From Bordetella holmesii ATCC 51541 (GTDB lineage: Bacteria; Pseudomonadota; Gammaproteobacteria; Burkholderiales; Burkholderiaceae_B): a DNA stretch of 64,000 bases. Of this stretch, positions 1 through 63,430 are shown in pieces. Made by a program: the position numbers and the translations under genes. The stretch spans positions 2,294,001 through 2,358,000 of the forward strand of contig CP007494.1 in the NCBI GenBank assembly GCA_000612485.1. The letters run 5' to 3'. Numbering within the stretch: the first letter of the stretch is position 1; the number at the start of each line of letters is the position of its first letter. The notes under the pieces were generated by a model, which ran no database searches, was not told the DNA's origin, and saw only the letters and a program-made list of their open reading frames with translations.

Positions 1-850
1 TAGCGCTCGACAATGACTTCGGAGCTGATCTGTGAGGCGGCTTCAAAGGCGGCCAGCACACGTTCACGCGTCTCGATGTTGACCGCAACGCCGCGCCCCT
101 GGCTGCCATCGCGCGGCTTGACCACGACCGGTCCGTTAAGATCCTGGGCCGCCTCCCAGGCGGCTTCGGCATCCTCCACGGAGCGGCCAAGCGGCACCGG
201 TACCCGGCCGCATCCAGTAGCATCTTGGTGAGGTCTTTGTCCTGCGCGATGGATTCGGCGATGGCGCTGGTGCGGTCGGTTTCGGCGGCCTGGATACGGC
301 GCTGCCGGCTGCCCTAGCCGAATTGCACCATGCTGCCCTGAGTCAGCCGGTGAAACGGAATGCCGCGCGAGGTCGCCGCCGTGACGATGGAACCGGTCGA
401 CGGGCCCAGGCGCACATCTTCGTCGAGTTCGCGTAAGCGGGCCAGGGCCTGGGGCAGATCAAAAGGCAGGTCCAGTCGGGCGGACTCAAGCAGTGCCTGA
501 GCCAGCTCCATGGCCAGGCGGCCAACCTCTTCTTCGCTGTATTCGACGACGACCTGAAACACACCCGGTTCGATGGTCGTCGAGGTGCGGCCAAACGTTA
601 CAGGGCAGCCGGCATGGGCTTGCAGGGCCAGGGCGCAGGCTTGCAGCACATGGGCCAATGAAACGGACCCGCTGTGCCCTTCGGGCAAAAGCAGGCCGAT
701 CTGGGGAAAACGCGCGCGCAACCTCGCCTCGAAGTCAGGCATGTTGTCGATAGAGCATTCATTGTCGGCGCAGGCCGCAATGGCTTCTATGGCGGTATTA
801 CGGCTCCAGAGGTTGGGGCCTCGCAAAACGCGGATTCGGGAGACTTCCAT
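1..850 (-). pseudogene. second cyanophycin synthetase-like gene, broken, runs off window edge
   Basis: Start at 850 (MEVSRIRVLRGPNLWSRNT). The N-terminal half resembles the family opening, and it sits 68 bp downstream of cphA on the same strand, so the two were probably cotranscribed. The family makes the arginine/aspartate storage polymer cyanophycin from amino acids and ATP. An in-frame TAG at 316-314 follows VQFG, where the family and the neighbouring paralog carry an aromatic residue (FGYGARQRR next door). Reading through it gives GSRQRRIQAAETDRTSAIAES, the ATP-grasp entry region. A second lesion near 203-205 needs one extra G/C to restore AAGVPVPLGRS. The rest lies beyond position 1. The nonsense codon looks like a true mutation; the frameshift may be a sequencing error. 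Confidence 0.85.
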
Positions 851-918
851 GGCAGGCTTTCCTGTCGTCGAAGCGCGCTGCCGGTAGGCAGCGCCTGTAG
901 AGTGTTTGTCGGTCGTTG

Positions 919-3485
919 TTATTGTTGAATCCAGCGGCGCACCAGATCGATGGTCGGTCCGGAGAACGCTTCATCCGATTGCAGCAGGATGAAGTCTTCG
1001 CTGGCCCGGCCATCGAGCACATGCCCGATGGCGCGCGCATGATCGGGCTCGTCCACGATCTGCACGGTGCGACCGCTGTCTTGCAGGCCCTGGCGCAGTA
1101 ACGCTCGCGCCTGGCCGGCCGGACGGCGGCTTTTGACGGTGGTGTCGTCATACAGCACCACCAGGTCGAACAGTTGCCCCAGCAGGCGGCCCTGTTCGAT
1201 CAGGTCGGCATCACGGCGGTCGGCGCCACCCGAGTAGACGGCCACACGGCGCTTGGCTGGAAAGCGGCGCACCGCCGTGGTCAGCGCGCGCAGCCCGGAG
1301 GCATTGTGCACATCGTCGACAACGACGGTGACGGAATCGCGTTCGAACACCGTGAATTGCCACGGTGCGTCGGCCTGATCGATATCGAAGGTTTCAATGC
1401 CGGCGCGGATGAGCTCGATCGAGATGTCCAGCGCCCAGGCCGCGGCCACGGCCGCCAGGACGTTCTCGGTCTGAAAGTCGACGCGCGCGCCATGGGTCAA
1501 CGGCACGGCAGCAATCGCGGCCAGCGTTTCCTCGTGCTCGCCACGAGCCAGCACGATCTGGCCGTCGCGGACGTATACGGCGCGTCTGCCTTGTGCGCGC
1601 TGCTGCACCAGAGCGGGCAATTCAGGGTCAATGCCAAAGAACAGTACTTCGCCGTCGCAGAGTTCGGCCATTTCGACCACACGCGGGTCGCGCGCGTTGA
1701 GTACGGCCGCGCCGGAAGGCAGGACGACGTCGACCTGGGTGCGAAACACCGTGAACAGGCGCTCGGTTTCATTGATGTCGAAGTCGCCCAGGTGGTCGCC
1801 GTCGTCGATGTTGGTTACCACGCCGACCTGGCAGCGGTCATAGGCCAGGCCCTGGCCGAGGATGACGGCACTATCGTTCTCGATGACCGCAGCCTCGACG
1901 TTGCGGTTCATCAGCACGCGGCGGCCGGCCGCCCAGTTGGCGCAATCCCCTTTTTGCACCAGCCGTTTGTTCAAGTACAGGCCTTCACTGCAAGCCAGCC
2001 CGGTCTGCTTGCCGGACAGGTGCAGCAGCCGGCTGATGAGACGCGCGACCACGGTTTTGCCGTTGGTGCCGGTTACGCCGACGATGGGAATGCGGCCATC
2101 CTCTCCTTCGGGAAAGAGATGGTCCACGATGGCACGTCCGACCGGACGCGGCTTGCCGTCAGCGGGTTTCAGGTGCATCAGCAGGCCAGGGCCGGCATTG
2201 ACCTCGACGATGGCGCCGCGCTGTTCTTCAAGCGGGCGCGAAATGTCTTCGGCCACCAGGTCGACGCCGGCGACGTCCAGGCCCACTGCGCGGGCGGCCA
2301 GAGCCACGAGTTCGGCGGTATCCGGGTGCACGCGATCGGTGACATCGAAAGCCACGTTGCCGCTGCGTTGGATAAGCACCCGGCGCCCGGCGGCCGGCAC
2401 GCCGTCGGCGGTCAGACCCTGACGGGCGATCTCCAGCCGCGCGGCGGAGTCCAGTCGTACGGGATTCAGCGGGTGGTCTTCGGTGCGGCCGCGACGCGGG
2501 TCGGTGTTGATCTGGCTATCGATGAGGTCCTGGACAGTGGAGGTGCCGTCCCCGGTGATCCAGGCCGGTTCGCCGGCCGCCGCGGCGACCAGGCGGTCGC
2601 CAACCACCAGCAAACGGTGTTCATTGCCGGGCACGAAGCGCTCGACGATCACGCCACTGCCTTCGTCGACCGCGACGGCATAGGCCGATTCGACCTCCTC
2701 GCGGCTCGATAGGTTGGTGAACACGCCCCGGCCATGATTGCCGTCATAGGGTTTGACGACCACCGGCAGGCCGATGCTTTCGGCGGCCTCCCAGGCCTGT
2801 TCGATGCTATCGACCAACTGGCCTTCGGGCACGGGCACGCCGCAAGTCTGCAGAATGCTCTTGGTCAAATCTTTGTCGCGGGAAATCCCCTCGGCGATGG
2901 CGCTGGTGCGATCGGTCTCGGCTGTCCAGATGCGGCGCTGGCGCGCCCCGTAGCCGAACTGCACCAGATTGCCTTCGAACAAGCGGGTGTAGGCGATGTC
3001 GCGATCGTCGGCAGCATCCACGATGCAGGCCGTGCTGGGACCCAGGCAATGGCGGTCCACCAGGCGGCGCAGATCCGAGACGGCCTGCTCGACGTCAAAG
3101 GGACGGTCCTCGATGGCAGCCATGACCAGGTCGCGCGCCGTGTGCAAGGCCGCCCGGGTCACTTCCTCATGCCAGGCACGGACCACGACTTTGTACACGC
3201 CCACCGTGGATGTCTCGCGCGCTTTGCCAAACCCGCCTGGCAGGCCGGCCAGGTACCTTCGCGCAAACGTTGGAGAAAGCCTCCGCGCACGCCCGGGCTG
3301 CAGCGGTGTTCGATCAGCGAGGGTAACCAGGCGGTCAGACGTTCATAAAAGCCCGGGATGACATTGGAGGGGCACTCTTCCAGCGCACCGATGTCAACCC
3401 ACGCCTCTAGCACCGGACGATAGGTCCAAATGTTCGGGCCGCGCAAAGCCACGACATCGAGAAATTCAATGTCCTTCTTTTTCAT
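919..3485 (-). pseudogene. cphA: cyanophycin synthetase CphA with internal ~46-bp deletion
   Basis: Start ATG at 3485 (MKKKDIEFLDV). CphA polymerises Asp and Arg into cyanophycin; the protein has an N-terminal domain, an ATP-grasp domain and a Mur-ligase-like domain. Visible features: RGPNIW near the N-terminus, GRGVF in the ATP-grasp region, GVTGTNGKTVVARL as the Mur P-loop and TNIDDGDHLG downstream. The frame breaks near 3245: LREGTWPA is followed in another frame by GLPGGFGKARETSTVGVYK. The family normally has about 15 residues between these blocks (HVLEHVTLELQNLA type). Both ends of the missing piece would carry ACCTGGCCGGC, so slippage between direct repeats can explain the loss. Everything downstream, 761 codons, is open, so decay is recent. 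Confidence 0.88.
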
Positions 3486-3575
3486 GATTCGTTCTTTGGT
3501 TATGGCGCTTGGCTCGCGCAGGGAATCCGGGTCGCGAGTAGGTCCGGGGGGCGCACGGAGAAAATGAAGTGCCAA

Positions 3576-3750
3576 GCGGGATTGTGCGGGGATATTTCCT
3601 ACGGTGGAAAATATGAAAACCGGCTGCTACTATACGCCGCCTTTTCGGCCATATAAACTCGGGCTGTTGTAAGGAACGGACAGGTTTTCCGCCCTTGGTG
3701 GGGCAGGATGCCGCCAAGGCGGGTCGAAGCTTTGCTCGAAACGCGTTCTG
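3576..3750. promoter_or_regulatory. divergent intergenic region between cphA and the ABC exporter
   Basis: About 265 bp separate the two divergent starts (3485 and 3751). The plus-strand part contains TACTATAC near 3629-3636, a plausible -10 for the exporter. I see no clear -35 and no convincing ribosome binding site before 3751. Control signals for both directions should lie here, but I cannot place them precisely. Confidence 0.3.
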
Positions 3751-7633: not shown

Positions 7634-7685
7634 ACCGCAATGATAAAGTCCCGCCGGGGGTGCGCACACCGATAACGGGAACATC

Positions 7686-8489: not shown

Positions 8490-8522
8490 CCGGACGGTAC
8501 CGGCCACGTTTAGAATGCCCGC

Positions 8523-12166: not shown

Positions 12167-12486
12167 TCAGGGCTGATCGGCGTGCAGCCAGGGCAGGGGG
12201 CAGGGGCTTACCACGAAGCACAAGCCGGCATTGTCTTGCTTCCAGACAAACCCCGGGGCCAGGCGGCCAGCCATGGGCAGCATCAGCACATGCGGTTCGC
12301 CGCGGAAGTCGCCTTCCCAGCCTGCGCCTTCGGCCGCACTTTGGGCCTCGTTGAACGCCGCGCGCCAATCGTCGCGCGACAGCCCCTCATCCAGGCTATC
12401 CTCGGACAGGGCCAGAGCTTCGGCCACGGTCAGCAGGAAGTCCCAACCACCGTCGAGCGGGGGATTCGATATACATGCCAGTTCAT
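12167..12486 (-). pseudogene. small conserved-looking hypothetical protein, one-base frameshift near start
   Basis: A start at 12486 is preceded by AAGGAG at suitable distance and reads MNWHVYRIP, then the frame breaks at a run of five C (plus-strand G 12459-12463). Adding one C gives MNWHVYRIPPLDGGWDFLLT and continues as an open frame to 12167, about 107 residues, acidic, without signal peptide (SEDSLDEGLSRDDWRAAF; VLMLPMAGRLAPGFVWKQ; ending PLPWLHADQP). The longer frame running to 12553 lacks a binding site. I do not recognise the family. The good binding site and the clean repair by one base argue that this is a real gene with a sequencing or mutational indel. Confidence 0.6.
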
Positions 12487-12621
12487 ACGTTGCTGTACTC
12501 CTTGAGCGGTTCAGTGTAGCCAAGATGGCCAGGAACGGTTCGTCTGCGGTCAATGCACAAGCCGGCCCCGGCGGAGGGATTCCGGCGGTGCGTGACTGCG
12601 CACCATCACGAGGTAGATATT

Positions 12622-13411: not shown

Positions 13412-13935
13412 ATGTTTGACTCGCTGCACGCGCTTTACTCCTCTCTGGCGGCAAAATTACCGGCGTTAGGGCCATGGCAGGGGCCACTGGCCTGCGCGCT
13501 CGCTTTCGTCAAATCGCTGCCGCTGGTCGCGCTTTTTATTCCAGGCACGGCGCTTTTGCTGTCTATCGGCGCGGCGATACGTTTGAGCGAAGCGGGCTTT
13601 GTTGAGGTCTGGCTGGCTATCTCGTTGGGAGCGGCGTTGGGGACTGGGTGTCTTTCGCCGTGGGCGGCTGGGCGGGCCCGCGCGTGACGCATTGGCGCTG
13701 GGTCAAGCGTCGCCCGCAGCTTGTGTTGCGCGCGGCAGCGTTCGTGCAGCGCTGGGGAGTGCTCAGTATCTTGCTGTGCCGATTTTTTGGCCCGCTGCGT
13801 GCCACTGTTCCCATGGCCGCTGGCGTGTTCGGCATGCGGGCGGCCTGGTTTCAGGCGGCCAATTGGGTTTCTGCACCCCTATGGGCGGCCGCGCTGCTGT
13901 TGCCGGGCTGGTTGGGCAGCAGTTGGCTGCAATAG
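13412..13935 (+). pseudogene. DedA/VTT family membrane protein, one-base frameshift
   Basis: Frame one (13412-13687) reads MFDSLHALYSSLAAKLPALG and continues with hydrophobic helices (SLPLVALFIPGTALLLSIGA). Frame two (to 13935) carries the diagnostic DedA block LCRFFGPLRATVPMAAGVFG. They join if one G is added at the run 13639-13642, giving SLGAALGDWVSFAVGGWAGP, a normal DedA sequence. The repaired protein would be about 174 residues with four or five membrane helices. DedA proteins act in membrane lipid homeostasis and phospholipid scrambling. Probably an intact gene with an under-called G run, but as given it is broken. Confidence 0.8.
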
Positions 13936-17444: not shown

Positions 17445-18388
17445 GTTCATCGAGGAATACCGGGGAATGCAGACCGGATCTTGAGGAAGAAGTACTCCTG
17501 ATCGCGGTAGCCGTAGGCGCGGCGCTTGATGACTTTGATGGTGTTGTTGATGCCCTCGACGATGCTGGTGTTGAGCCGGTGGCGACAGCGAGACAGAATC
17601 CCGTGCAGATAGGCTTTTAGCTTGAGCGCGAAGTGAGCCAAGGCGGCGATGCCGCTGCCCTGAGCCTGTTGCAGCCAGTGATCCCATGCCTGGCGGGCGT
17701 AGCCGGGGTGTTGGTAGAACCACAGCTGTTTGAGCTCATCGCGCATCAGATAAGCGGTGAGCAAGGGCTGGTTGGCCTGGAGCAACTCGTCCAACTTTAC
17801 CGATTGGCACGGATCGAGGTTTTTGCGATTGCGCAGCAGTAGCCAGCGACTGGACTTGATCACCCGGCGGGCCGGCTTGTCGTGCCGCAACTGGTTCGCT
17901 TGGTCTACACGCACCCGGTCTATCACTTCACGGCCGTACTTGGCCACGACGTGGAACAGGTCGTAGACGATCTCGGCGTTGGGGCAGTTGGCCTGGATCT
18001 CCAGCTCATAGGCCGTCGTCATGTCGATCGCTACGGCCCGGATCTGCTGGGCAACTCCAGTTGGCAGTTGTTCGAAGAAGGCTCTGGCCGTCTCGCGCGA
18101 GCGGCCATCACCGATCCATAGCACCTGACGGCGGATCGGATCGACAACGACCGTGGCATAACGATGGCCCTTGTGTAGAGCGAACTCGTCCATCGCTAGG
18201 TAGTGGATCTGGCTCCAGTCCGGCTCTTGGATCGCCCGTCGCAGCAGGGCCTTGTCCAGCGCCTTGACCGTGTGCCAACCCAGTTGGAAGAAGCGCGCCA
18301 CGGCCAGAATGTTGCTGGACTCAAGCAACTGGCTGACCGCCTCGGCCAGCCGGTCGGTCACTCGCTGGTAACGGCCCAGCCAGCTCAG
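17445..18388 (-). mobile_element. truncated ISL3-family element, IS1001-like, copy 1
   Basis: Nearly identical to 19642-20587 of the complete copy; I noticed one substitution (a Pro-to-Ser change, CCC against TCC) in about 940 bp. The left terminal repeat is present but lacks one G (GTTCATCGAGG after eight A). The right 356 bp, encoding the first ~92 residues of the transposase including its zinc-finger domain, are replaced by the IS3-family element beginning at 18389. The catalytic C-terminal domain remains (SWLGRYQRVTDRLAEA to SAFPGIPR). An apparent start in a longer frame (to 18538) is made of IS3 sequence and is not a real N-terminus. It cannot transpose by itself. Confidence 0.85.
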
Positions 18389-18448
18389 TGACCTGCTCCC
18401 CGTGATTAGTACGAAATCGATGTAGAGTCCGTTCCCAAAGGAATGGCA

Positions 18449-18709
18449 ATGAAGAAACGATTTACGGAAGAGCAAATCATCGGCGTGCTCAAGGAAGCCG
18501 ATGCAGGTGCCAAGCCCGCAGAGTTGTGCCGCAAGCACGGAATCTCCGAGGCAACGTACTACAACTGGAAGGCGAAGTTCGGTGGCATGACGGTGTCGGA
18601 CGCTCAGAGGCTCAAGGAGCTGGAGCAGGAGAACAACAAGCTCAAGAAGCTGTTGGCCGAGTCGATGCTGGACAAGGCGGCGCTTCAGGATCTGCTAAGC
18701 CGAAAGTAG
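18449..18709 (+). CDS. IS3-family transposase OrfA
   Basis: 86 residues from ATG at 18449; an ATG two codons earlier is also possible, but AAAGGA is better placed for this one. Helix-turn-helix DNA-binding region (AELCRKHGISEATYYNWK) followed by a leucine-zipper-like coiled coil (LKELEQENNKLKKLLAESML). Ends LLSRK at CGAAAGTAG, where a -1 shift would lead into orfB to make the full transposase OrfAB. Confidence 0.88.
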   Translation: MKKRFTEEQIIGVLKEADAGAKPAELCRKHGISEATYYNWKAKFGGMTVSDAQRLKELEQENNKLKKLLAESMLDKAALQDLLSRK

Positions 18710-19569
18710 TCAGCCCGCAGGCCAAACGCGAGGCGGTCAGGACATTAATGACCGAGCGCAGCATGGGTGTTACCCGGGCCTGTGGGCTGGTAGGAATTTC
18801 GCGGTCGCTGTTTGCCTACGAGAGCACACGCTCAGGCGATGCTGCGCTGACCGAGCGCATGAAAGAGATGGCAGTGGCGAAACGACGCTACGGCTATCGG
18901 AGGATCCATGTGCTCTTACGTCGCGAAGGCTGGCAAGCAAATCACAAGCGAATCTGGCGGCTGTACAGTCTGGCAGGGTTAAGCGTGCGAAAACGAAAGC
19001 GTAAGCGAATCGCGGCGACCGAGCGCGTGGTTCGCCCAGCGGCAATCGCGCCGAATCAGAGTTGGTCAATGGACTTTGTGGCCGACGGCCTAGCCTATGG
19101 CCGCCGATTCCGCTGTTTGACTATCGTCGATGACTACACTCACGAATGCCTGGCCATCGAGGTCGATACGTCGTTGCCGGGACTGCGTGTTGCCATGGTG
19201 CTGCAACGGCTGGCGGAGATGCGTGGCCTGCCGCGATCTATTACCGTGGACAACGGGCCAGAGTTCGCCGGAAGAGCCTTGGACGCCTGGGCCTACCAAG
19301 CAGGCGTAAAGCTGTCGTTTATTCGGCCGGGTAAGCCGGTGGAGAACGCTTATATCGAAAGTTTCAACGGCAAGTTCCGCGACGAATGCCTTAACGAGCA
19401 CTGGTTCTTGTCCCTGCGACAGGCTAAAAGCTTGATCGAAAACTGGCGAGTCGAGTACAACACCGATCGGCCTCACAGCGCGCTCGGATATTTAACGCCG
19501 GCGCAATTCGTGCAGGCTCATCAGAAAGAAGGTCTTTTACCCCTGGGCTCTATGTCGGTGCCGTACTAA
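18688..19569 (+). CDS. IS3-family transposase OrfB (DDE catalytic subunit)
   Basis: Frame -1 relative to orfA; the precise entry point is uncertain and it is probably made by programmed -1 frameshifting near GCCGAAAG. About 290 residues: KPKVVSPQAKREAVRTLM, the HTH_21-like region YGYRRIHVLLRREGW, and the rve domain with catalytic Asp in WSMDFVADGL, Asp in TVDNGPEFAGRA and Glu in NAYIESFNGKFRDECLN. All three DDE residues are present, so the enzyme should be functional. Confidence 0.88.
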   Translation, partial: GSAKPKVVSPQAKREAVRTLMTERSMGVTRACGLVGISRSLFAYESTRSGDAALTERMKEMAVAKRRYGYRRIHVLLRREGWQANHKRIWRLYSLAGLSVRKRKRKRIAATERVVRPAAIAPNQSWSMDFVADGLAYGRRFRCLTIVDDYTHECLAIEVDTSLPGLRVAMVLQRLAEMRGLPRSITVDNGPEFAGRALDAWAYQAGVKLSFIRPGKPVENAYIESFNGKFRDECLNEHWFLSLRQAKSLIENWRVEYNTDRPHSALGYLTPAQFVQAHQKEGLLPLGSMSVPY

Positions 19570-19585
19570 ATCTGGGGGCAGGTCA

Positions 19586-19630
19586 GTCCCAATGCATTCA
19601 CGGCCCCGATCTGACAGCAGACTGCAGGCA
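19586..19630. other. short spacer between IS3 element and ISL3 copy 2
   Basis: About 45 bp of non-IS sequence (GTCCCAATGCATTC ... CTGCAGGC). It matches neither flank of ISL3 copy 1, so it is what is left of the sequence between the ssrA terminator and the deleted region. Confidence 0.6.
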
Positions 19631-19641
19631 AAAAAAATGGT

Positions 19642-20862: not shown

Positions 20863-20871
20863 GATCCCGGC

Positions 20872-20898
20872 CTTGATCCTTGAAAATCAAGGATCAAG
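20872..20898 (-). promoter_or_regulatory. perfect 12-bp hairpin before the ISL3 transposase start
   Basis: CTTGATCCTTGA and TCAAGGATCAAG form a perfect 12-bp stem around a 3-base loop. Reading the minus strand, its 3' arm ends in AAG of the AAGG that lies 8 bases before the transposase ATG, so the stem can cover the ribosome binding site when transcription enters from outside the element. Confidence 0.6.
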
Positions 20899-20943
20899 CG
20901 TAACGGCAATCAAGCACGGCTCCACGCTATTCCGCGATGAACC

Positions 20944-20982: not shown

Positions 20983-21371
20983 TGGTGGAGCCGGGGGAAT
21001 TGAACCCCCGTCCGCAAGCCCTCCACAGTCAGTTCTACATGCTTAGTCGATCTATTTGGATTTAACCCCGGACTTAGCCGATCAACGGGCCGGACCGAGG
21101 CGATTCACGTAATTTAAATCTGAGCCGTGTGACCCCAGCGCAGACCGATTCCTTGTGAATAACGTTGCTGTGGTTCGAGGGTTGCCCCCCTAGGAAGTTG
21201 CCTTCCTCCACCTGACCCAAGGACAGATCAGTGCAACGGCTCACCGCTTAAGCGGCGAGAGCGAAACGCTCGTCGTTGGCGTTTGTTTTGTTTCCAGTGG
21301 ATTTACGAGCTTACTGGTGCTCGGCATGCCCTGAGCTGCTTCATGACCCACGTCGAATCCGGATCGGCCCC
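20983..21371 (-). ncRNA. ssrA: transfer-messenger RNA (tmRNA), one-piece
   Basis: 389 nt. The 5' GGGGCCG pairs with the 3' CGGCTCC ahead of the encoded ACCA; the T-arm is GGGGGTTCAATTCCCCC. The tag frame (minus strand 21280-21248) reads ANDERFALAA then TAA, the tag I know from beta-proteobacteria. tmRNA with SmpB frees stalled ribosomes and marks the unfinished protein for proteolysis. A -10-like TACAAT lies just upstream (rc of 21385-21390). The gene is complete; its 3' end is a common integration target, and here it borders the plasticity zone. Confidence 0.96.
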
Positions 21372-34850: not shown

Positions 34851-35743
34851 GCGCAGAGCAAGCCCCGCAGGCGAGCCCCGCCATCGCGGTGCTGGCCGTG
34901 GTGGGTGTGGGCTTGATCGGCGGCTCGTTTGCCGCAGCGTTGCGCCAGGCTGGCCAGCTTGGCCGCGTCCTGGGCGTGGGCCGCAATCCAGAGTCGCTGG
35001 CGCAAGCCTTGGCGCTGGGACTCATCGATGAAGCCGTCAGTCCCGAGGAGGCCGCCGCGCGGGCCGATCTCATTCTGCTGGCGACACCCGTGGGCAGCGC
35101 GGGTTCCATGCTGGCGCGTATGCGCGAGCATCTCGGGCCGCAGTGCCTGATTACCGATGGTGGCAGCACCAAGGTCGAAGTCGTCGCGGCTGCGCGAGCA
35201 GCCTTGGGCGAGCGTATCTCGGCGTTTGTGCCAGGCCATCCCATTGCGGGCGCCGAGCGCACCGGTCCGGAGGCAGCCGATGCCCGTTTGTACGAAGGAC
35301 GCAACGTCATCCTGACGCCGTTGGCCGAGAATGCGGCCGCTGCCGTGGCCCGCGTGCGCACCGCCTGGCAGGCTTGCGGGGCGCATGTGTTGGAAATGAC
35401 GCCGCACGAGCACGATAGCGTGCTGGCCTCGGTCAGCCACATGCCGCATTTTCTGGCCGCAGCCTATATGGCGCAGGTCTGTGAGGCAAGCGATGCTGCC
35501 ACACGCCTGGATCTGGCCGGTTCTGGATTTCGGGATTTCACCCGCATCGCCGCTGGCTCGCCCGAAATGTGGCGCGATATATTCCTGTCCAACCGTTCAG
35601 CCATGTTGACGGAGCTCGGGGCGCTGCGCGCGGTACTGGACCGAACCGAAGCCGCCTTGGCGGCCGGCGATGGTGCGAGCTTGCAGCAGTGGCTGCAGGA
35701 CGCCGCCACCGCCCGGCGCGCCTGGCGCAAGGAGTCTGCCTAA
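34847..35743 (+). CDS. tyrA: prephenate/arogenate dehydrogenase
   Basis: 298 residues from ATG at 34847. NAD-binding motif [15 protein letters not shown] near the N-terminus; catalytic His region [38 protein letters not shown], as in TyrA. No chorismate mutase or ACT domain is fused. Catalyses oxidative decarboxylation to 4-hydroxyphenylpyruvate or tyrosine. Coupled to hisC by ATGA and to aroA, whose ATG lies at 35743. Confidence 0.93.
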
Positions 35744-37061
35744 TGAGTGCTCTGGCCTATCTGGATCTGCCTGCTGCGCGCCACGCCCGGGGCGTGGTGG
35801 CCTTGCCAGGGTCCAAAAGTATTTCCAACCGCGTGCTGCTGATCGCCGCCTTGGCCGAAGGACGCACCGAGATTTCCGGCCTGCTGGACTCCGACGATAC
35901 CCGCGTGATGCTGGCTGCTCTGCGGCAACTGGGTGTGGCGGTGGTCGATCTTGGCCCGGGGCACGTGGCTGTCGAAGGCCTCAGCCGGTTTCCCGTCGAG
36001 CAGGCCGAGATTTTTCTTGGCAATGCCGGAACGGCCTTTCGTCCTTTGACCGCGGCACTGGCCCTCATGGGGGGCGATTACCGCCTCTCGGGCGTGCCGC
36101 GCATGCATGAGCGGCCCATCGGTGACCTCGTCGACGCGTTGCGCGGCTGGGGTGCCCGCATTGATTATCTCGGTCAGGAAGGCTATCCACCGCTGCACCT
36201 GGGCCGCGGCCACGCGCAGGCCGATACGGTGCGTGTGCAGGGGTCGGTGTCGAGCCAGTTCCTGACCGCGTTGTTGATGGCCGCGCCTATCGAGGCTGGC
36301 TCCAGCGGGCGCACCATCACCATCGAGGTGATCGGAGAACTGATCTCCAAGCCCTATATCGAGATCACACTCAACCTCATGGCCCGTTATGGCGTGACGG
36401 TGCGGCGCGATGGCTGGCGTGCCTTCACGATCGAAGGCGGCGCGCGTTACCGCAGCCCGGGCCGCATCGCGGTCGAGGGCGATGCCTCCACCGCCTCGTA
36501 CTTTTTGGCGCTGGGCGTGTTGGGGGGAGGGCCGGTGCGCGTGACGGGCGTCGGTGAAAACAGCATTCAGGGCGACGTGGCGTTTGCCGACACGTTGGCG
36601 GCCATGGGTGGGACCATCACCTGGGGGCGGACTGGATCGAAGCCAGCGGCCGGGCGGTGGCCGACGGAGGGCGGATCAAGGCTTTTGACGCCGATTTCAA
36701 CCTGATACCCGATGCGGCTATGACCGCTGCGGCCATGGCCCTGTTTGCCGATGGCCCCTGCCGCCTGCGCAACATCGGCAGCTGGAGAGTCAAAGAAACC
36801 GACCGCATTCACGCCATGCAGACGGAGCTAGCCAAACTGGGCGCGACGGTCGAATATGGCCCCGATTGGCTGACGATTGCTCCGCCAGCCGATGGCCAGT
36901 GGCGCGACGCCCAGATCGGCACCTGGGATGATCACCGCATGGCCATGTGTTTCTCGCTGGCGGCCTTTGGGCCGGCGGTCGTGCGCATCCTGGACCCGGG
37001 CTGTGTGAGCAAGACCTTCCCCAATTATTTCGACGTTTATGCAAGCCTGATCAGCGCTTGA
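35743..37061 (+). pseudogene. aroA: EPSP synthase AroA, one-base frameshift
   Basis: Start at 35743 ([20 protein letters not shown]). Frame one runs to 36705 with [13 protein letters not shown] (substrate-binding Lys), [17 protein letters not shown] and [13 protein letters not shown]. The frame breaks at the G run 36623-36627: TITWG should continue as [19 protein letters not shown], which lies in the frame ending at 37061 with [12 protein letters not shown] and [10 protein letters not shown]. Adding one G or C restores a normal protein of about 439 residues. As written, the shikimate pathway would lack its sixth enzyme. It lies inside an otherwise intact operon, which argues for a sequencing error. 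Confidence 0.9.
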
Positions 37062-40545: not shown

Positions 40546-41775
40546 GTGGACTTTGAACCCTGGTGGCTGATTTTCGTGCCCGTGCTGTTTGCACTGGGCT
40601 GGTTGGCAGCGCGTTTTGATTTCAGGCAGATGTTGCGCGAGACGCGCACCTTGCCGGATTCATATTTTCGCGGCCTGAATTTTTTGCTCAACGAGCAACC
40701 CGATCGAGCCATTGATGCCTTCGTCGAGGTCGCCAAGCTGGACCCTGAGACGACGGAGCTGCATTTTGCCCTGGGGAGCCTGTTTCGCCGGCGTGGCGAG
40801 ATGGAGCGGGCCATCCGGGTACACCAGAGCCTGTTGAGCCGCTCCGATCTGCCGCAGGCCGAGCGTGAGCATGCGCAGCACGAGCTGGCGCAGGATTTTC
40901 TCAAGGCGGGAATGCTGGATCGCGCCGAGGCCGCCTTTGAACAGCTCAAGGCCACTGACACGCGCTATGCCTTGCCGGCTTTGCGCTCGCTGATCCGCAT
41001 CTATGAATCCGAACACGATTGGCCACGAGCCATCGAGGCGGTCAAAACCTTGCACGGCCTGGTCGACGAGCCCGTGCCGCAACTCGTCCATTACTACTGC
41101 GAGCAGGCCCAGGGAGCGCTGTCGGCCAAACCCGCCGACATCGAAGCTGCACTGACGGCTCTGGACGCAGCCGATCACGCCGTCGAAGTCGCGGGTCGCG
41201 GTGAGAGCCTGAGCCACGGCTCCAAGGTGCGCACGTCCTTGTTGCGCGCGCGGCTGGCCGGGCTGGAAAACGACAGCAAGCGTGAACGCCTGTATCTGGA
41301 AAGCATACTCGCCGATGCGCCGGAGTATGCCGGCCTTGTGGCCGAGCAGTTGCTGGCCAATTACCGGCAGGCCGGTGAGGCGGTGCAGGGCTTGGAGCAT
41401 TTGCGCGCGCAGTACGAGCGCCACGCGTCGCTGGATCTGTTCAACGTGGTCTTCCGCGAGTTACGGGCACAGCAAGGCAGTGATATGGCTTGGGCCTTTG
41501 CGCGCGCCGCGTTGCGCCATCATCCTTCGCTGTTGGGCCTGGACCGCCTGCTGGAAGCCGAGCTGAGTGCGCAGCCTGCCGGCGAAGCGCAAAGCAGCCC
41601 CGTGCCCGGTGCGGACCTGAGCTTGTTGCGTACCCTGATCCACAAACATACGCAGCGCCTCGATCGCTACGCCTGCCGCAATTGCGGATTTCAGGCGCGC
41701 CGCTTCTACTGGCAGTGTCCGGGTTGTAACGCCTGGGAAACCTACACCCCGCGTCGTTTGGAAGAACTTGAATGA
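40546..41775 (+). CDS. lapB: lipopolysaccharide assembly protein LapB (YciM)
   Basis: 409 residues from a GTG start at 40546. One N-terminal membrane helix ([20 protein letters not shown]), about nine TPR repeats, and a C-terminal rubredoxin-like zinc site (YACRNCGF...[12 protein letters not shown]). LapB brings LpxC to the FtsH protease and links LPS synthesis to export. The stop overlaps the rfaE start (41772-41775), tying LPS control to the heptose genes. Confidence 0.93.
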
Positions 41776-42712
41776 TGTCTTTTCCCGCCCAGGCTCTTGC
41801 CCGAGCCCGCGTGCTCGTTGTTGGCGATGTCATGCTGGACCGTTATTGGTTCGGTGAGGTCGAACGCATTTCCCCCGAAGCTCCGGTACCTGTGGTGCGG
41901 GTGGCGCGGCGCGAGGATCGGCTCGGCGGCGCGGCCAACGTGGCGCGCAATATCGCGGCGCTGGGTGCGCATGCCACGCTGATCGGTGTGGTGGGGGCCG
42001 ATGAGGCAGGCGGGCGCATCGCGGCGCTGGCCTCTGAGGCTGGCGTGCGAACCGATCTGATAGCTGACCCGCAGGGGCACACTACGCTCAAGATGCGCGT
42101 GCTGGGTCGCCAGCAACAGTTGCTGCGCGTCGATTTCGAAGAGTCACCCGTTGGGGCTACGCTTGACGGCTAGACCAGGCTCTGGCGCGTGAGCTGTCGG
42201 CGTGCGATGTCCTGGTGCTGTCGGATTACGCCAAAGGCGCGCTGGCGCGGGTGCAAGCCATGATCGTGGCTGCACGCGCCCGCAACATTCCGGTGCTGGT
42301 CGACCCCAAGGGGGATGACTACACACTTTATCGTGGCGCCACTCTGGTCACACCGAATCGCTCCGAAATGCAGCAGGCCGTGGGTCGCTGGGCAAGCGAG
42401 TCGCAACTGACCGAGCGTGCGCAGGCGTTGCGCACGGAACTGGATCTGGAAGCGTTGCTGGTGACGCGTTCGGAGCAGGGAATGACGCTGTTTACCCAGA
42501 ACGGACGCGAGCACGTCGACGCTCAGGCGCACGAAGTATTCGATGTCTCCGGTGCCGGCGATACCGTGCTGGCGACGCTGGCGGTCATGCGCGCCGCAGG
42601 CCTGTCGTGGGTGGATGCAATGCGCTGGGCCAACCGCGCCGGCGGCATCGTCGTCGGCAAGCTGGGCACATCGATCGTGACCGGCACTGAACTCGCAGGA
42701 GAAGCAATATGA
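41772..42712 (+). pseudogene. rfaE: D-glycero-beta-D-manno-heptose-7-phosphate kinase (RfaE/HldE domain I), one-base frameshift
   Basis: Start at 41772 overlapping lapB. PfkB-family sugar kinase: [20 protein letters not shown] and [20 protein letters not shown] in the N-terminal half, and FDVSGAGDTVLATLAVMRAA (catalytic Asp) in the C-terminal half. The frame breaks at 42169-42170: ATLDG is followed by a stop, but adding one G gives [19 protein letters not shown], continuing into LSDYAKGAL and ending at 42712. The repaired product of about 313 residues has only the kinase domain. It makes the ADP-heptose precursor of the LPS core with HldD, next door. Confidence 0.9.
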
Positions 42713-43813: not shown

Positions 43814-44163
43814 ATGCGTTTCCGTTCCCTTTGCCTGCCGGGCCGACTCGTGGCCGCCGCGTTGCTTCTGGGTCCTGCGGCGCCTGCCTCGGCGCTGGAT
43901 CTGAATAGCGCCACGGCGGCGCAACTGCGTGAACTCAAAGGCCTTGGGCCACGCAGTGCCGAACTCATCGTCCATGAGCGGGACCGAGCAGGCCCGTACC
44001 GATCGCTCGAAGATTTAAGCGACCGGGTGCGCGGTATCGGCGCGCGCAAAGCCGCCAGCCTGGCCGAGGCCGGCCTGACGGTGGGAAAACCGTCGGCGGG
44101 CCAACCCGCGGGGCCAAGCCCGCCACGTCCGCTAAAGCGCCAGCCCCAGCCCGTCGTCCCTGA
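43814..44163 (+). pseudogene. ComEA-like helix-hairpin-helix protein, one-base frameshift near the end
   Basis: Start at 43814 with AGGAG upstream. Signal peptide (LVAAALLLGPAAPASA) and a double helix-hairpin-helix domain (LDLNSATAAQLRELKGLGPR; GIGARKAASLAEAGL). ComEA-type proteins bind DNA in the periplasm during uptake. In the frame as given the ORF runs on into cysM, but with one more G at 44110-44113 the tail becomes AGAKPATSAKAPAPARRP and stops at 44163, a normal Ala/Pro-rich ending. The 499-residue ComEA-CysM fusion frame is thus an artefact of the indel. Confidence 0.8.
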
Positions 44164-44224: not shown

Positions 44225-45135
44225 ATGAACGCCATCACTTACCCCACCGTCGAGCAAACTGTCGGCAACACGCCGTTGGTGCGCTTGCAACGCATTCCTG
44301 CCGAGCTCGGTCAGGCCCGCGGCAACGTCATTCTCGCCAAGCTAGAGGGCAATAATCCTGCCGGCTCGGTGAAAGACCGGCCCGCTTTGTCGATGATTCT
44401 GCGCGCTGAAGAGCGGGGCGAGATTGCCCCCGGCGACACGCTGATCGAAGCCACCAGCGGCAATACCGGCATCGCCTTGGCCATGACCGCTGCGATGCGC
44501 GGCTATCGCATGATTCTCATCATGCCGGACAATCTGTCGGTGGAGCGCCGCGCGGCCATGACGGCCTATGGCGCTGAACTCATCCTGACACCCGCCGCCA
44601 AAGGCGGTATGGAGTACGCCCGCGATCTGGCCACCGCGATGCAGGCCGAAGGCAAAGGCAAGGTGCTGGACCAGTTCGCCAATCCGGATAATCCGCGCGC
44701 TCATATCGAAGGGACCGGTCCGGAAATCTGGACCCAGACCCAGGGCCAGGTGACGCATTTCGTCAGCGCCATGGGCACCACCGGCACGATCATGGGGGTG
44801 TCCACCTATCTGAAGTCGCGCAACCCGGCCGTGCAAGTGGTGGGCGCGCAGCCGGCAGAGGGGTCGCAGATCCCGGGTATCCGCAAGTGGCCTGAGGCCT
44901 ATCTGCCACAGATTTTCGATCGTTCCCTGGTCGACGCTTACGAGTCGATCGGCCAGACCGAGGCCGAAACCATGGCGCGGCGCCTGGCTGCCGAGGAAGG
45001 CATCTTCGGAGGCATTTCGTCAGCAGGAGCGCTGGTCGCCGCCTTGCGTGTGGCAGCGCGGGTCGAAAACGCCACCATCGTCTTCATCGTCTGTGACCGG
45101 GGGATCGTTACTTGTCCACGGGCGTATTCAACTGA
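44225..45135 (+). pseudogene. cysM: cysteine synthase B, one-base frameshift at the C-terminus
   Basis: Start at 44225 (MNAITYPTVEQTVGNTPLVR). PLP enzyme: the lysine lies in NNPAGSVKDRPAL, phosphate loop TSGNTG, and GTTGTIMGVSTYL. All but the last ~10 residues are in one frame. At the G run 45099-45103 one added G turns VCDRGIVTCPRAY into VCDRGDRYLSTGVFN and a stop at 45135, the usual CysM ending. Makes cysteine from O-acetylserine and sulfide or thiosulfate. Without repair the protein would carry about 60 foreign C-terminal residues, running through the terminator. Confidence 0.9.
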
Positions 45136-45200: not shown

Positions 45201-46339
45201 TTAGCGGTGCCCCATGCGCAACTGCAGCTCGGCGGCCAGGTCGGCCACCGCCGTGGCATAGAAGTAACTGCGGTTGTATTGGGTAATGACAAAGAAATTG
45301 GCTGTGGCGGTACGGTACTGCGCCGTGCCGCGCGCCTCTTCGGCCAGATCCACCACACCCAGCGGGCTGGACTGCCAATTGCTGGCGGCCGCCCCCGGTG
45401 CGACCCTGGCGCCGGCCTGTTGCAGACCGGCCCAGTCCAGCTTGGGTGTCAGCCCGCCGTCGACCAGGGACGATGGGTTGGCGGGCAGGACCACTGGCGC
45501 GAAGACGGGCAGGCCGCGTTGCCAGCCATGTTGTTGCAGAAAACTGCCGACCGACATCACCGCATCAGGCACGCTGCTAGCCAGATCGATATGCCCGTCG
45601 CCATCACCGTCGACGGCATAATGGGCAATGCTGGTGGGCATGAACTGGGGCATGCCGATGGCGCCCGCGAATGAGCCCTGGGTATCGGGTGCGAGCTTGC
45701 CTTGCAGGGTAAGGGTGATGAAATCGGCCAACTGCTTGCGGAACATCTCTACGCGTTCGGGCTTGACGGGCTCCGGATAGTCGAAAGCCAGGGTGGCCAG
45801 CGCGTCGATGACACGGAAGTTGCCCATGTTGCGCCCGTACAGGGTTTCGACTCCGATGATGGACACAATGATCGACGCCGGTACGCCGTACTGCTGAGCG
45901 GCGCGTTCGATGACGGCGCGATGCTCGTTCCAGAATTCAACACCCCAGGCAATGCGTTTGGGCTCGACAAAGCGCGAGCGATAGGTGTTCCAGCTGCGCC
46001 AGACTTTGCGGCCGGGCACGGAAGGAGCGATCAGGCGCGTGACGGTGCTGCTGTAGCGAGTATCGGCGAGCATGGCCAGGATCGAATCCAGCGGCAGCGA
46101 TCGTTCGTCAGCGAGCGATTCGGCGAAGCGACGCACTTCTGGACGCATTTTGCCGCCGGGGGTGAGCGTGGCGGAAGGCTCTGCCGCGGGCGTAGTCGCG
46201 CCGATACGGATGGCCTGGGGTTTACCCTCGGTTGCGGCCGAGGAAGGGCGGATGCGCCGGGTTGGGAGGAGGGGGAGGCACAGCCTCCGAGCAGGACAGC
46301 CGCAAAGCCGATTTGCAGGAAACGCCGGGTGATGAACAT
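45201..46339 (-). pseudogene. mltB: lytic transglycosylase MltB-type lipoprotein, one-base frameshift
   Basis: Start at 46339 (MFITRRFLQIGFAAVLLGGC), with lipobox LLGGC. The frame breaks at the run 46246-46248 (three G, plus strand): adding one base joins the lipoprotein N-terminus (GCASPSSQPGASA) to PSSAATEGKPQAIRIG and the catalytic domain ending at 45201. The catalytic Glu is in IIGVETLYGRNMGN; GSFAGAIGMPQFMPTSIAHY and VDGDGDGHIDLAS are diagnostic. Anchored in the outer membrane, it cleaves peptidoglycan. The start overlaps that of the divergent deacetylase-like gene. Confidence 0.85.
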
Positions 46340-53581: not shown

Positions 53582-53602
53582 AAGCATTGCAGTGACCTCT
53601 GC

Positions 53603-53630: not shown

Positions 53631-53767
53631 GGTGCGGCCTCGTGCATCAGGCCCCGATAGGGCTATATCGCTTCTAACGATGAGTAATCAAAAAATGATT
53701 CGTTCCTTTCAGTTGGTTGGGCTTACACACTGCAGGCATTGCCCCTCGAACAAGAAAGGAAACGAAC

Positions 53768-54793: not shown

Positions 54794-54808
54794 GGAAACG
54801 GGTTCGCG

Positions 54809-56568: not shown

Positions 56569-56580
56569 TCGGGGGAAAAC

Positions 56581-58370: not shown

Positions 58371-58383
58371 GAAAGGAAACATC

Positions 58384-59292: not shown

Positions 59293-59305
59293 ACCGGAAG
59301 ACATC

Positions 59306-60613: not shown

Positions 60614-60758
60614 AGCGCCCGGGCGGCCTGTTGTTTTTTGTCCAAACCCTTTCCTGCAGCGGCTTTCCAGGCGTTTTCCAGTACGTGAAATGAATTCCGT
60701 GCACGCCTGGCGGCAGTTGGGGTACAGTCGTCTCGTGGTTCTTGCGAGGACGTAGGGC

Positions 60759-60788
60759 TTGTCAAAAGTACTGTGTTTTTGTACAGTA
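60759..60788 (+). promoter_or_regulatory. SOS (LexA) box overlapping a promoter
   Basis: TACTGTGTTTTTGTACAGTA (60769-60788) has perfect CTGT-N8-ACAG halves and matches the E. coli-type LexA consensus. TTGTCA at 60760-60765 and TACAGT at 60783-60788 are spaced by 17 bp as -35 and -10, so the LexA box covers the -10. The first start codon (60794) is only 5 bases further on. Confidence 0.8.
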
Positions 60789-60793
60789 CATCC

Positions 60794-62137
60794 ATGATGA
60801 GCACCGAACATTCGCTTTCCGCCGGTTATGGGTCCCCGGCTGCCGCCCCCGCCGCCTCGCGCGGTCGGGGTGCGGTTACTAATGTTCGCCACCGCTTCGA
60901 GCAGGTCGAGCGCGAGGCCTTCGATGACGGCTGGTTTGGCGGCGATGATTCGCCCGCAGCCTTCGATGCGTCCCTGGACGAGATCCAGGATGAACCCAAG
61001 CGCCCACCCCGCTCCGAACCCGCAGAGGCCGAGGCACTCGGTGTCACGGAGATGGCTCCGGAACCGGGCAGGCCATCCGCAGCGGTGGGCCTGCCGCAGT
61101 CTGCGACGCAACATTTCATCCCGGTAGTGGCCGTGCCGCGCACCACGGTGCGGCCGGAGCAGGCGCGCAAGCTCCTGTCACGCAACGATTCTCCGGACAT
61201 TCCGTTTGATGTGGCGGTCAATCCTTACCGCGGCTGTGAGCACGGCTGCGTCTACTGCTATGCCAGGCCTACACATGCCTACCTGGGCTATTCGCCCGGC
61301 CTGGACTTCGAAACCCGGCTGGTCGCCAAAGCCAACGCCGTCCAGGCATTGCGTGCCGAGCTGGCGCGCCCCAGTTACAAGGTGTCGCCGATCAATATCG
61401 GCTCGGCAACGGATGTCTATCAACCCATCGAACGCACCTGGCGCTTGACCCGTGGCCTGCTTGAACTCATGGTCGAGACCCGTCACCCCCTGACGCTGGT
61501 CACCAAAAACTCTCTGGTCGAACGCGACCTCGATCTGCTGACCACGTTGGCGCGCGATCGACTGGTGACGGTTTTCATCAGCATCACCACGTTGGACGCC
61601 GACATGGCCCGCACCCTGGAACCACGTGCGTCTGCTCCCTGGCGCCGCATCGAGACCGTGCGCAAGCTGGCCGAGGCCGGTATCCCGGTGGGCGTGCTGG
61701 TTGCGCCGGTGATTCCCTTCATCAATGACGAGTCCATGGAGCAGATTCTGGAGGCGGCATCGGCAGCCGGCGCCTGCTCGGCCAGCTATACCGTGGTGCG
61801 TCTGCCCTGGGAGGTGAAGGACGTTTTCGAAACCTGGCTGCACACGCACTTTCCCGATCGTGCTCAGCGTGTTTTGCACCGTATCGAAGACATGCGAGAG
61901 GGCAAGCGCAATGACAGCAGTTTTGATACGCGCATGCGCGGCACGGGAATCTGGGCGGATTTGCTGCGGCAGCGCTTTGAGCTGGCGGTGCGCAATCTGG
62001 GTCTGGGCAGGCTGCGACCCGAACTGGCGCTCGACCACTTTGTGCCACCCGTTATCGCTGCGACAGTGCGTCGTGGACGGGGCAGCGCCAGCGACGCCGC
62101 GCGTGAGGCGGGTCAGATGGCGTTATTCGAAGATTGA
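60794..62137 (+). CDS. radical SAM protein, PA0069/Rv2578c type (spore photoproduct lyase-like)
   Basis: 447 residues from ATG at 60794 (ATG also at 60797). After an unusual ~110-residue N-terminal region (RGRGAVTNVRHRFEQVEREA), the radical SAM motif is NPYRGCEHGCVYCYARP, i.e. the CxxxCxxC that binds [4Fe-4S]. NIGSATDVYQPIERTWRLTR and TLVTKNSLVERDLDLLTTLA are family blocks shared with spore photoproduct lyase relatives. The reaction is not known; a LexA box directly upstream suggests DNA damage. As I recall, the Pseudomonas PA0069 gene is also in the LexA regulon. Intact. Confidence 0.88.
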   Translation: MMSTEHSLSAGYGSPAAAPAASRGRGAVTNVRHRFEQVEREAFDDGWFGGDDSPAAFDASLDEIQDEPKRPPRSEPAEAEALGVTEMAPEPGRPSAAVGLPQSATQHFIPVVAVPRTTVRPEQARKLLSRNDSPDIPFDVAVNPYRGCEHGCVYCYARPTHAYLGYSPGLDFETRLVAKANAVQALRAELARPSYKVSPINIGSATDVYQPIERTWRLTRGLLELMVETRHPLTLVTKNSLVERDLDLLTTLARDRLVTVFISITTLDADMARTLEPRASAPWRRIETVRKLAEAGIPVGVLVAPVIPFINDESMEQILEAASAAGACSASYTVVRLPWEVKDVFETWLHTHFPDRAQRVLHRIEDMREGKRNDSSFDTRMRGTGIWADLLRQRFELAVRNLGLGRLRPELALDHFVPPVIAATVRRGRGSASDAAREAGQMALFED

Positions 62138-62218
62138 TCCAAGGCAGTTTCTTAAACATGTCCATGGTCGGACACCCCACGCCGGGCAGGGCCTGGCAGG
62201 CGCACTAGGAGAGTCATC

Positions 62219-62518
62219 ATGACGACGGTTACCCTTCCCGCAGATGCATTGCTTGCTCATCGCCCGGCAGCACCTCGCCCACGGCCCCTATCCCGACCCG
62301 TTTCCGGAACCTCTCCGGCGCGTGCTCCGGCATGGCCATTTCAGGCGCCGGCCCAGCCCGCTGCCGCACCGGATGATGTGGCGTCCCAGGCCGACGCCGA
62401 ACACGACCTTCAGACCAAAGCGCTGCGTCGCCGTATGGCCTGGGATGTGGTCATGGTGTTGTCCTGGGGGGCAGCGATTCCCGGGCTGATGTGGCTGGGT
62501 GCGGCGTTCGGTTTCTGA
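62219..62518 (+). CDS. hypothetical protein with C-terminal membrane helix
   Basis: 99 residues with a good ribosome binding site (TAGGAGAGTCATC before the ATG). The first ~70 residues are Ala/Pro/Arg-rich and probably disordered; the last ~25 (WDVVMVLSWGAAIPGLMWLG) form one membrane helix. I do not recognise it. Its codon use resembles neighbours, and the binding site supports expression, but a longer overlapping frame on the same strand makes the call moderate. Confidence 0.55.
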   Translation: MTTVTLPADALLAHRPAAPRPRPLSRPVSGTSPARAPAWPFQAPAQPAAAPDDVASQADAEHDLQTKALRRRMAWDVVMVLSWGAAIPGLMWLGAAFGF

Positions 62519-62558
62519 GCGTCGCTCAGGCGACCGCACGCCGGCCGTAGTGCAGATC

Positions 62559-63430
62559 TCAGCTTGACCCCAACAGGACGACCCCGAGCAAAATGGCGCC
62601 GCATCCCGCCAGCCGTCCCGGGCCGACTTTTTCGCGCAGCAAAAACATTCCGGCCAATGTGCCCAGCATCATGGACATTTCGCGTGCAGGTGCGACCAGG
62701 CTCAACGGGGCTCCCATTCTCAGGGCGTAGAGCACCAGGATGTAGCCCAGCGGCGATAGCAGCCCTACGGCCAAGGCCAGATGCCAATAGCCGCGCATGG
62801 CAGGAAAGTACTGTGTTCGCCGCTTGAACACATGCGGTGTCATCATCGCGGTCCGTGTCACGCAGGTAAACCAGTCAAACAGCACAGGCATGATGAGCAG
62901 GTTTTTGACCCCGTAGGCATCCACCACGGTGTAGGCTGCGATGAACAGGCCAATCAATACGCCCCAGCGCACTCCGATCCAGGCCTGCGGCGTATGAAAC
63001 ATGCTCAGGCGTCCTTGTGTGGCGATCAACAGCACCCCACCTACTACGCAGAGCATCCCGGCAATCCCCGTAGCGGTGGCCGGTTCTGCCAGAAGCGTAA
63101 AAGCCCCGATGGTCGACAGCAGAGGCCCGTACCCCTTGCTATGGGATAGACCACCGACAGATCCGCCACCTGATAGCCGCGCTGCAAACAGAGGCTGTAG
63201 CCCAGATGCAACAGGGACGACGCCAGAATACAGACAAGAACAGGCCAACTCCATTGCATGCCTTCGTGTGCCAGCACCCAGATAACCCAGGGGGCGTAGA
63301 GCAGGCTGGCGGCCAGGCCATAGGCAAAGACAAAGACCGGGCCGACCATGGCTGCCCGTTTGGCGAGCAGATTCCAGGTCGCGTGGGCCATGGCGGCCAG
63401 CACAACCAGAACAAGGGACGCATAAGTCAT
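62559..63430 (-). pseudogene. EamA/DMT family transporter, one-base frameshift
   Basis: Start at 63430 (MTYASLVLVVLAAMAHATWN). Drug/metabolite transporter with about ten helices. The frame breaks at 63125-63127: YPIARGTG continues as LCCRPSG, but one added G (four G instead of three on the minus strand) gives RGTGPLLSTIGAFTLLAEPA and leads to the second half ending at 62559 (REKVGPGRLAGCGAILLGVV). Restored length about 290 residues, normal for the family. Substrate unknown. Confidence 0.85.

What the first reader, a model, noticed from the sequence alone, without database searches (positions are those of the whole stretch)
203..63127. Ten genes broken by loss of one base, nearly all in G/C runs
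Each of these gives a normal protein if one G/C is added: cphA2 (203-205), hypothetical (12459-12463), dedA (13639-13642), Bug receptor (22344-22348), aroA (36623-36627), rfaE (42169-42170), comEA (44110-44113), cysM (45099-45103), mltB (46246-46248), eamA (63125-63127). All are -1; no +1 was seen, and aroA, rfaE and cysM are hit. True decay should give insertions and deletions, and spare central genes. Systematic under-calling of G/C runs is the simpler reading.
Basis: partly seen in the sequence, partly recalled or inferred. Interest (0 to 1): 0.75.

Follow-up and report, generated by a model that had tools for sequence, protein, structure and literature searches.

The report
Missed bases that fake broken genes
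The 'broken' genes in this stretch of what is likely the Bordetella holmesii type-strain genome are mostly likely sequencing errors, in which an early long-read assembly would have dropped single bases from runs of G or C, so the reference should be checked before gene loss is read from it.

Summary
The observation largely holds. Nine of the ten places show a frame change equivalent to losing one base; the hypothetical gene is ambiguous and the Bug receptor weak. The genome's length equals Bordetella holmesii ATCC 51541, CP007494, assembled with HGAP 1.4 from PacBio RS. In 264 kb, breaks called by both reference genomes number 26 in G000 (23 of -1, 3 of +1), against 3 and 6 in two relatives. 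They sit in G/C runs, and apparent loss climbs with run length. rfaE and aroA have no intact copy, yet this strain's LPS core contains three L,D-heptoses and it grows, weakly, in Stainer-Scholte medium. Under-calling is the best reading. Against it or unresolved: the broken AroA cluster stands for a second contig, no intact holmesii AroA or Bug was listed, insertion-sequence copies show few losses, a conserved-run test shows no excess, and no raw reads were seen.

The parts
1..850 (-). cphA2 (cyanophycin synthetase, runs off the window): one frame change equivalent to -1 plus a nonsense codon; likely a real pseudogene with or without the frame change
   Evidence: (relative named by NCBIfam)
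12173..12540 (-). hypothetical protein gene with a diverged N-terminus; frame change against G006 but not overall against G001; ambiguous
   Evidence: no Pfam match to the relative at E 1e-5
13412..13932 (+). dedA-type gene (VTT domain), frame change equivalent to -1
20983..21371 (-). tmRNA (ssrA): one run in the conserved tRNA-like end is one base shorter than in 9 of 9 relatives; one consensus pair lost
   Evidence: 205.7 against 214.3 bits
21433..22403 (-). Bug-family substrate-binding protein, frame change in the signal peptide region; weak case
35743..37058 (+). aroA (EPSP synthase), broken in its last third; no intact copy in G000
41772..42709 (+). rfaE domain I (heptose-7-phosphate kinase), broken near the middle; no intact copy in G000
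43814..44160 (+). comEA-type helix-hairpin-helix protein, broken 16 residues from its end
44225..45132 (+). cysM (cysteine synthase B), broken 11 residues from its end; the larger piece still scores over the family cut-off
62562..63430 (-). EamA-family transporter, frame change near residue 101 of 290
60735..60775 (.). non-coding stretch with a one-base deficit by net length against 2 of 4 aligned relatives; candidate only
62184..62224 (.). non-coding stretch just upstream of a reading frame, with a one-base gap against 2 of 2 aligned relatives (net deficit in 1 of 2); candidate only
60827..62134 (+). intact radical SAM gene used as control: the cluster of its protein stands for 84 contigs in the protein database

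Best explanation
The one-base frame breaks in this window are likely consensus errors of an early PacBio/HGAP assembly of Bordetella holmesii ATCC 51541, in which single bases would have been dropped from runs of G or C, and are mostly not real gene losses. Shown: the breaks exist against relatives, are in large excess over two related assemblies, concentrate in G/C runs, rise in apparent rate with run length, and also touch the tmRNA. Inferred: that the chromosome carries the longer runs, since no reads were seen. Two lesions beside them (a 46-nt deletion in cphA1 and a nonsense codon in cphA2) look real, so artefact and true decay are mixed in the same window.
For: G000 is 3,699,674 bp in one contig, the length given for ATCC 51541, CP007494, in PMC5624759 (whole text read). 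That paper says HiSeq 2000 and PacBio RS data were combined and that assembly was by HGAP 1.4; no short-read polishing is stated. PMC4888979 (passage) reports 561 single-base homopolymer deletions, shown by Illumina reads, in an HGAP_3 PacBio consensus with a 2.9-Mb chromosome and three plasmids. Breaks called by both of two reference genomes in 264 kb of G000: 23 of -1 and 3 of +1; the same test gave 3 in G006 and 6 in G001. Apparent loss by supposed true run length 3, 4, 5, 6, 7: 1 of 3985, 6 of 802, 7 of 143, 7 of 33, 2 of 2. tmRNA run short against 9 of 9 relatives, with a consensus pair lost. rfaE and aroA have no intact copy in G000, yet PMC7504554 (passages) finds three L-glycero-D-manno-heptoses in the core and smooth LPS of ATCC 51541, and growth, though weak, in standard Stainer-Scholte medium, which PMC5648915 (passages) calls minimal. 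lpd (both references) and sucA (one reference) show the same kind of break in the neighbouring stretch. The clusters of the broken AroA and Bug products stand for 2 and 1 contigs, that of an intact neighbour for 84.
Against: No raw reads or second holmesii genome could be searched. The cluster of the broken 320-aa AroA stands for a second contig besides the 3,699,674-base one. No full-length holmesii AroA or Bug was listed among the best 120 hits; it may sit unseen inside another cluster, be withheld, or not exist. In 81 listed insertion-sequence copies none is shorter than the commonest form at a G/C run, where about 4.2 losses were expected from the run-length rates, although one G tract varies in 13 of 40 copies. 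A test limited to runs conserved between species showed no excess in G000, though it has little power. Three of 26 breaks are +1.
Confidence: 0.86

Rival explanations
1. Genuine gene decay of a host-restricted pathogen: the genes really lost one base by slippage in G/C runs and are pseudogenes in the species.
For: B. holmesii has lost many genes and has degenerate loci (PMC5045587, passages); cphA1 and cphA2 carry real-looking lesions; G000 holds at least 81 copies of two insertion sequences; the cluster of the broken AroA stands for a second contig; no intact holmesii AroA or Bug was listed; insertion-sequence copies and conserved runs show no clear excess of losses.
Against: The LPS core of the same strain contains heptose although the only rfaE is broken, and the strain grows in Stainer-Scholte medium although the only aroA is broken. 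The tmRNA and central genes such as lpd and (one reference) sucA are hit. The runs are short (2 to 6 bases as read), where natural slippage is not expected to be frequent (recalled). The clusters of the broken products stand for few contigs (2 and 1, against 84).
Confidence: 0.09
2. Real mutations confined to the culture that was sequenced, for example a laboratory stock with raised slippage.
For: PMC5454989 (passages) notes that a one-base bvgA change reported in ATCC 51541 is absent from this deposit and suggests variation between subcultures.
Against: Loss of aroA, lpd and rfaE together in one stock is implausible; the steep run-length dependence is what base-calling error predicts. No mutator gene was looked for.
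Confidence: 0.03
3. The genes are expressed despite the break, by ribosomal or polymerase slippage on G/C runs.
For: The breaks lie in runs, and rfaE appears functional.
Against: Most runs have 3 to 5 bases as read, below usual polymerase slippage lengths (recalled). Slippage in translation cannot help a tmRNA. By eye no shared slippery motif stands out in the contexts printed; no motif search was run.
Confidence: 0.02

Closest known systems
Homopolymer deletions in PacBio HGAP consensus (example: Enterococcus faecium ATCC 700221, PMC4888979, passage)
   Same: Single-base deletions in homopolymers of an HGAP consensus; similar order of frequency (561 there, with a 2.9-Mb chromosome; here 22 breaks of the -1 kind, cphA1 left out, in about 190 kb of aligned coding sequence)
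   Different: There Illumina reads showed them and Pilon removed over 90%; here reads were not available, and only breaks visible in genes were counted
Frameshift pseudogenes of host-restricted Bordetella
   Same: Same genus, a genome with true losses; cphA1 and cphA2 fit this
   Different: Hits single-copy central genes and the tmRNA, almost only -1, concentrated in G/C runs

Membership tests
PacBio/HGAP homopolymer under-call | Assembly made from long reads with no stated short-read polishing | tested here: met
   PMC5624759, whole text; identity of G000 rests on the exact length
PacBio/HGAP homopolymer under-call | Errors are overwhelmingly single-base losses | tested here: met
   23 of 26 both-reference breaks are -1; one of these is really a 46-nt deletion
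PacBio/HGAP homopolymer under-call | Errors lie in homopolymers and become more frequent with run length | tested here: met
   a test limited to runs conserved between species was uninformative
PacBio/HGAP homopolymer under-call | Also outside protein genes | tested here: met
   tmRNA; two further non-coding candidates kept of six extra places looked at
PacBio/HGAP homopolymer under-call | Also present in repeated elements at the same rate | tested here: inconclusive
   no copy of 81 is shorter than the commonest form at a G/C run, about 4.2 losses expected; one G tract varies in 13 of 40 copies; the elements have few long runs
PacBio/HGAP homopolymer under-call | Independent reads support the longer run | not testable with these tools
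   no reads available
Genuine frameshift pseudogenes | Same break in independent isolates | tested here: inconclusive
Genuine frameshift pseudogenes | Gene function absent in the strain | tested here: not met
   by published data on the strain, for rfaE (heptose in the core) and, less firmly, aroA (weak growth in Stainer-Scholte medium): PMC7504554 passages; other genes not tested
Genuine frameshift pseudogenes | Accompanied by nonsense codons and larger deletions | tested here: inconclusive
   established for cphA1 and cphA2; the further in-frame stops listed were not sorted into real and antisense or start-site cases

The most novel reading that the evidence does not exclude
The error runs in both directions: besides making false pseudogenes, dropped bases in this type-strain deposit hide true frameshifts, so that pagP and bvgA, which other laboratories reported with one extra base, look open here only because a base is missing. 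The published virulence-gene status of the type strain would then be wrong both ways.
Probability: 0.3. Interest if true: 0.45.

Novelty: not a real feature. Interest (0 to 1): 0.3.

Why it matters
The assembly appears to be the type-strain genome and is the genome held for its species here. At about one frame break per 8 to 9 kb of aligned coding sequence (22 in about 190 kb), several hundred genes would be falsely scored as lost if the rate holds genome-wide, including aroA, rfaE and lpd, and the tmRNA would be misread. That would distort pseudogene counts, metabolic models, core-genome lists and published arguments that rest on single bases (pagP, bvgA). It would also mask the few real losses, such as the cyanophycin genes.

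Tried and rejected
One search (tblastn frame jumps with simple longest-ORF gene sets) gave many false jumps from antisense ORFs and was replaced by a frameshift-aware protein-to-DNA aligner (set up). One search stopped on a file-writing error and was rerun, whose output was cut in the middle. (all gaps against G006) is noisy in diverged and non-coding stretches and was used only to find candidates; of the six extra places it gave, two were kept. In-frame stops listed mix real stops, antisense ORFs and start-site extensions; only cphA2 was checked at the DNA level. Run-length spectra: G000 lacks runs of 7 and 8 in 184 kb, but relatives have 0.5 to 8.6 runs of 7 per 100 kb, so no claim is made. 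The conserved-run test gave 16 losses in 4819 G/C runs for G001 to G000 against 17 in 5431 for G001 to G006, and 8 in 4587 for G006 to G000 against 7 in 5050 for G006 to G001, hence no excess; the affected runs are mostly not runs in the relatives, so power is low. The isolate test by protein clusters was not decisive; whether the contig counts refer to the listed protein or to its whole 90% cluster is not certain. Dropped before counts: calls made by one reference only are not in the 26 (14 in the 184-kb stretch, among them dedA, the hypothetical gene, sucA and an OPT transporter; 1 and 7 in the two distant samples), nor one place in G000 and one in G001 where the two references differ in sign. 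The controls use G000's own, partly broken, gene set as one of their two references. The 23 events are a hand-made list: the 17 both-reference -1 calls of the 184-kb stretch other than cphA1, plus dedA, the hypothetical gene, Bug, sucA, OPT and tmRNA. Random positions were drawn from the whole 184 kb, coding or not. In one search the run for one event (ggt) was taken from a wider window. Ribosomal or polymerase slippage was considered and rejected.
Full report
WHAT THE WINDOW IS. The window is bases 2,294,001-2,358,000 of a single-contig genome of 3,699,674 bp. PMC5624759 (whole text read) gives exactly this length for Bordetella holmesii ATCC 51541, CP007494. No handle carries a name, so the identity is inferred from the length and from kinship. 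G006 is B. genomosp. 12 and G001 is B. pseudohinzii by matching contig lengths. The paper states that HiSeq 2000 and PacBio RS data were combined and that assembly was done with HGAP 1.4; no short-read correction is mentioned.

THE OBSERVATION. Nine of the ten named places show a frame change equivalent to losing one base. aroA and rfaE are short against 11 of 11 aligned relatives each, cysM and eamA against 6 of 6 each, dedA against 2 of 2. mltB shows the change against all 6 references (modulo 3) and comEA against 3 of the 4 that aligned. The Bug break lies in a signal peptide about 40% identical to relatives; of 7 sequences printed, 4 cross it, all with a -1-equivalent change, and 3 begin to align downstream. 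The hypothetical gene at 12.2-12.5 kb is ambiguous: one reference gives -1, the other -2 and -1, which together keep the frame. The claim that each gene would be normal with one more base is wrong for cphA2, which also has a nonsense codon where both relatives have a sense codon.

In the tmRNA (20983-21371) one run in the tRNA-like end is one base shorter than in 9 of 9 relatives, and Rfam scores it 205.7 bits against 214.3 for G006, with one consensus pair lost. cphA1 (922-3485) carries a 46-nt deletion against both relatives. Two non-coding places, of six extra places looked at, may also be one base short.

HOW MUCH, AND WHERE. I aligned proteins of two relatives across 264 kb of G000: 184 kb around the window and two distant 40-kb samples. 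A frameshift-aware aligner was used, and a break was counted only when both references called it with the same sign. G000 has 26 (23 of -1, 3 of +1); the same test on the matching regions gives 3 for G006 and 6 for G001. Aligned length was about 63,000-64,000 residues for G000 and 63,000-68,000 for the two others, by reference. By stretch, G000 has 20, 1 and 5; most aligned sequence lies in the first. The cphA1 deletion is one of the 23, which leaves 22 of the one-base kind. Genes broken in the neighbouring stretch include dihydrolipoyl dehydrogenase, PHA synthase, gamma-glutamyltransferase and 3-methyladenine glycosylase (both references) and 2-oxoglutarate dehydrogenase E1, sucA (one reference). 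sucA is in two pieces in G000, the larger still over the family cut-off, and no other match was listed.

CONTEXT. On a list of 23 events of the -1 kind in the 184 kb, 21 lie within 3 nt of a G/C run of at least 3 (random positions 0.227), 15 within 3 nt of a run of at least 4 (0.050) and 8 of at least 5 (0.009). If each lost base belonged to the nearest run, the apparent loss by true run length is 1 of 3985 (3), 6 of 802 (4), 7 of 143 (5), 7 of 33 (6) and 2 of 2 (7). Such steep dependence at short lengths is what base-calling error predicts. PMC4888979 (passage) reports 561 single-base homopolymer deletions in an HGAP_3 PacBio consensus with a 2.9-Mb chromosome, found with Illumina reads; this is the same order of frequency.

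FUNCTION. rfaE domain I has no intact copy in G000: two pieces plus one weak hit far below the cut-off. aroA likewise is in two pieces plus two weak hits. PMC7504554 (passages) describes the LPS of ATCC 51541 itself: smooth, with three L-glycero-D-manno-heptose residues in the core, which is identical to that of B. pertussis 606. Making L,D-heptose needs this kinase (established knowledge). The same paper grew the strain, weakly, on standard Stainer-Scholte medium (more with riboflavin), which PMC5648915 (passages) calls a minimal medium; without EPSP synthase a cell would need aromatic compounds (established knowledge). I did not see the composition of the medium as used, some versions contain casamino acids (PMC3349578, passages), and growth was weak, so aroA is the less firm of the two.

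EVIDENCE AGAINST OR OPEN. In the protein database the cluster of the broken 320-aa AroA stands for 2 contigs and that of the broken 278-aa Bug for 1, against 84 for the product of an intact neighbouring gene. That suggests the breaks are rare among holmesii assemblies. But no intact holmesii AroA or Bug was among the best 120 hits, genes annotated as pseudogenes leave no protein, it is not certain what the contig counts cover, and the second AroA contig is unexplained; strain 44057, from the same pipeline, is a guess. In 81 listed copies of two insertion sequences none is shorter than the commonest form at a G/C run (60 of the 81 were aligned), against about 4.2 losses expected; reads shared between copies may have corrected them (inference). 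One G tract of the IS3-type element has three lengths among 40 copies and is the only indel site in the 30 aligned. A test limited to runs conserved between species showed no excess and has little power.

REAL DECAY BESIDE IT. The cphA1 deletion and the cphA2 nonsense codon cannot come from dropping one base, so the cyanophycin genes are likely true pseudogenes. True gene loss and degenerate loci in B. holmesii are described in PMC5045587 (passages).

LITERATURE. PMC5454989 (passages) reports that pagP differs by one G between this deposit and three isolates, and that a bvgA insertion described earlier for ATCC 51541 is absent from the deposit. In the deposit an open frame spans pagP. These authors suggest random mutation for bvgA; a dropped base in the deposit is an alternative that I could not test. 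Searches for 'CP007494' (3 papers), for holmesii with ATCC 51541 and genome (14 papers), with frameshift and PacBio (1 paper) and with pseudogenes and genome (9 papers) listed no title about indel errors in this assembly; only some of those papers were opened.

VERDICT. Interest is modest: the value lies in the warning about a type-strain reference. On re-checking, confidence was lowered from 0.87 to 0.86 because the contig counts bear less than first written.

Noticed in passing
window 17447-20930: A transposase gene (406 aa in the full copy) occurs twice, the first copy interrupted by an IS3-type element; 40 and 41 near-identical copies of the two elements are listed in the genome, both lists capped.
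   Followed up: partly
IS3-type element, window 18390-19580: Among 40 copies listed, the length is 1191 (27 copies), 1192 (3) or 1193 (10) bases; in the 30 aligned the difference lies in one G tract. The shortest form keeps an open frame in the window, so the longer ones would be broken by extra bases.
   Followed up: partly
window 922-3485: 46-nt deletion in cphA1 against both relatives; by eye it is flanked by short direct repeats.
   Followed up: partly
G000:C1:2267000-2272500: Cluster of three +1 calls: a FecR-like gene (one reference), and a short gene and its neighbour of about 536 aa (both references); the last two are two of the three both-reference +1 calls in 264 kb.
   Followed up: no
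G000:C1:2382000-2384700: A YbbP-like ABC permease gene (below the family cut-off) has two separate -1 changes, each in a long G run.
   Followed up: no
G000:C1:630144-630686: pagP is spanned by an open frame in the deposit, although isolates are reported to have an extra base; the paper's text is inconsistent about which gene and which strain has the extra base.
   Followed up: partly
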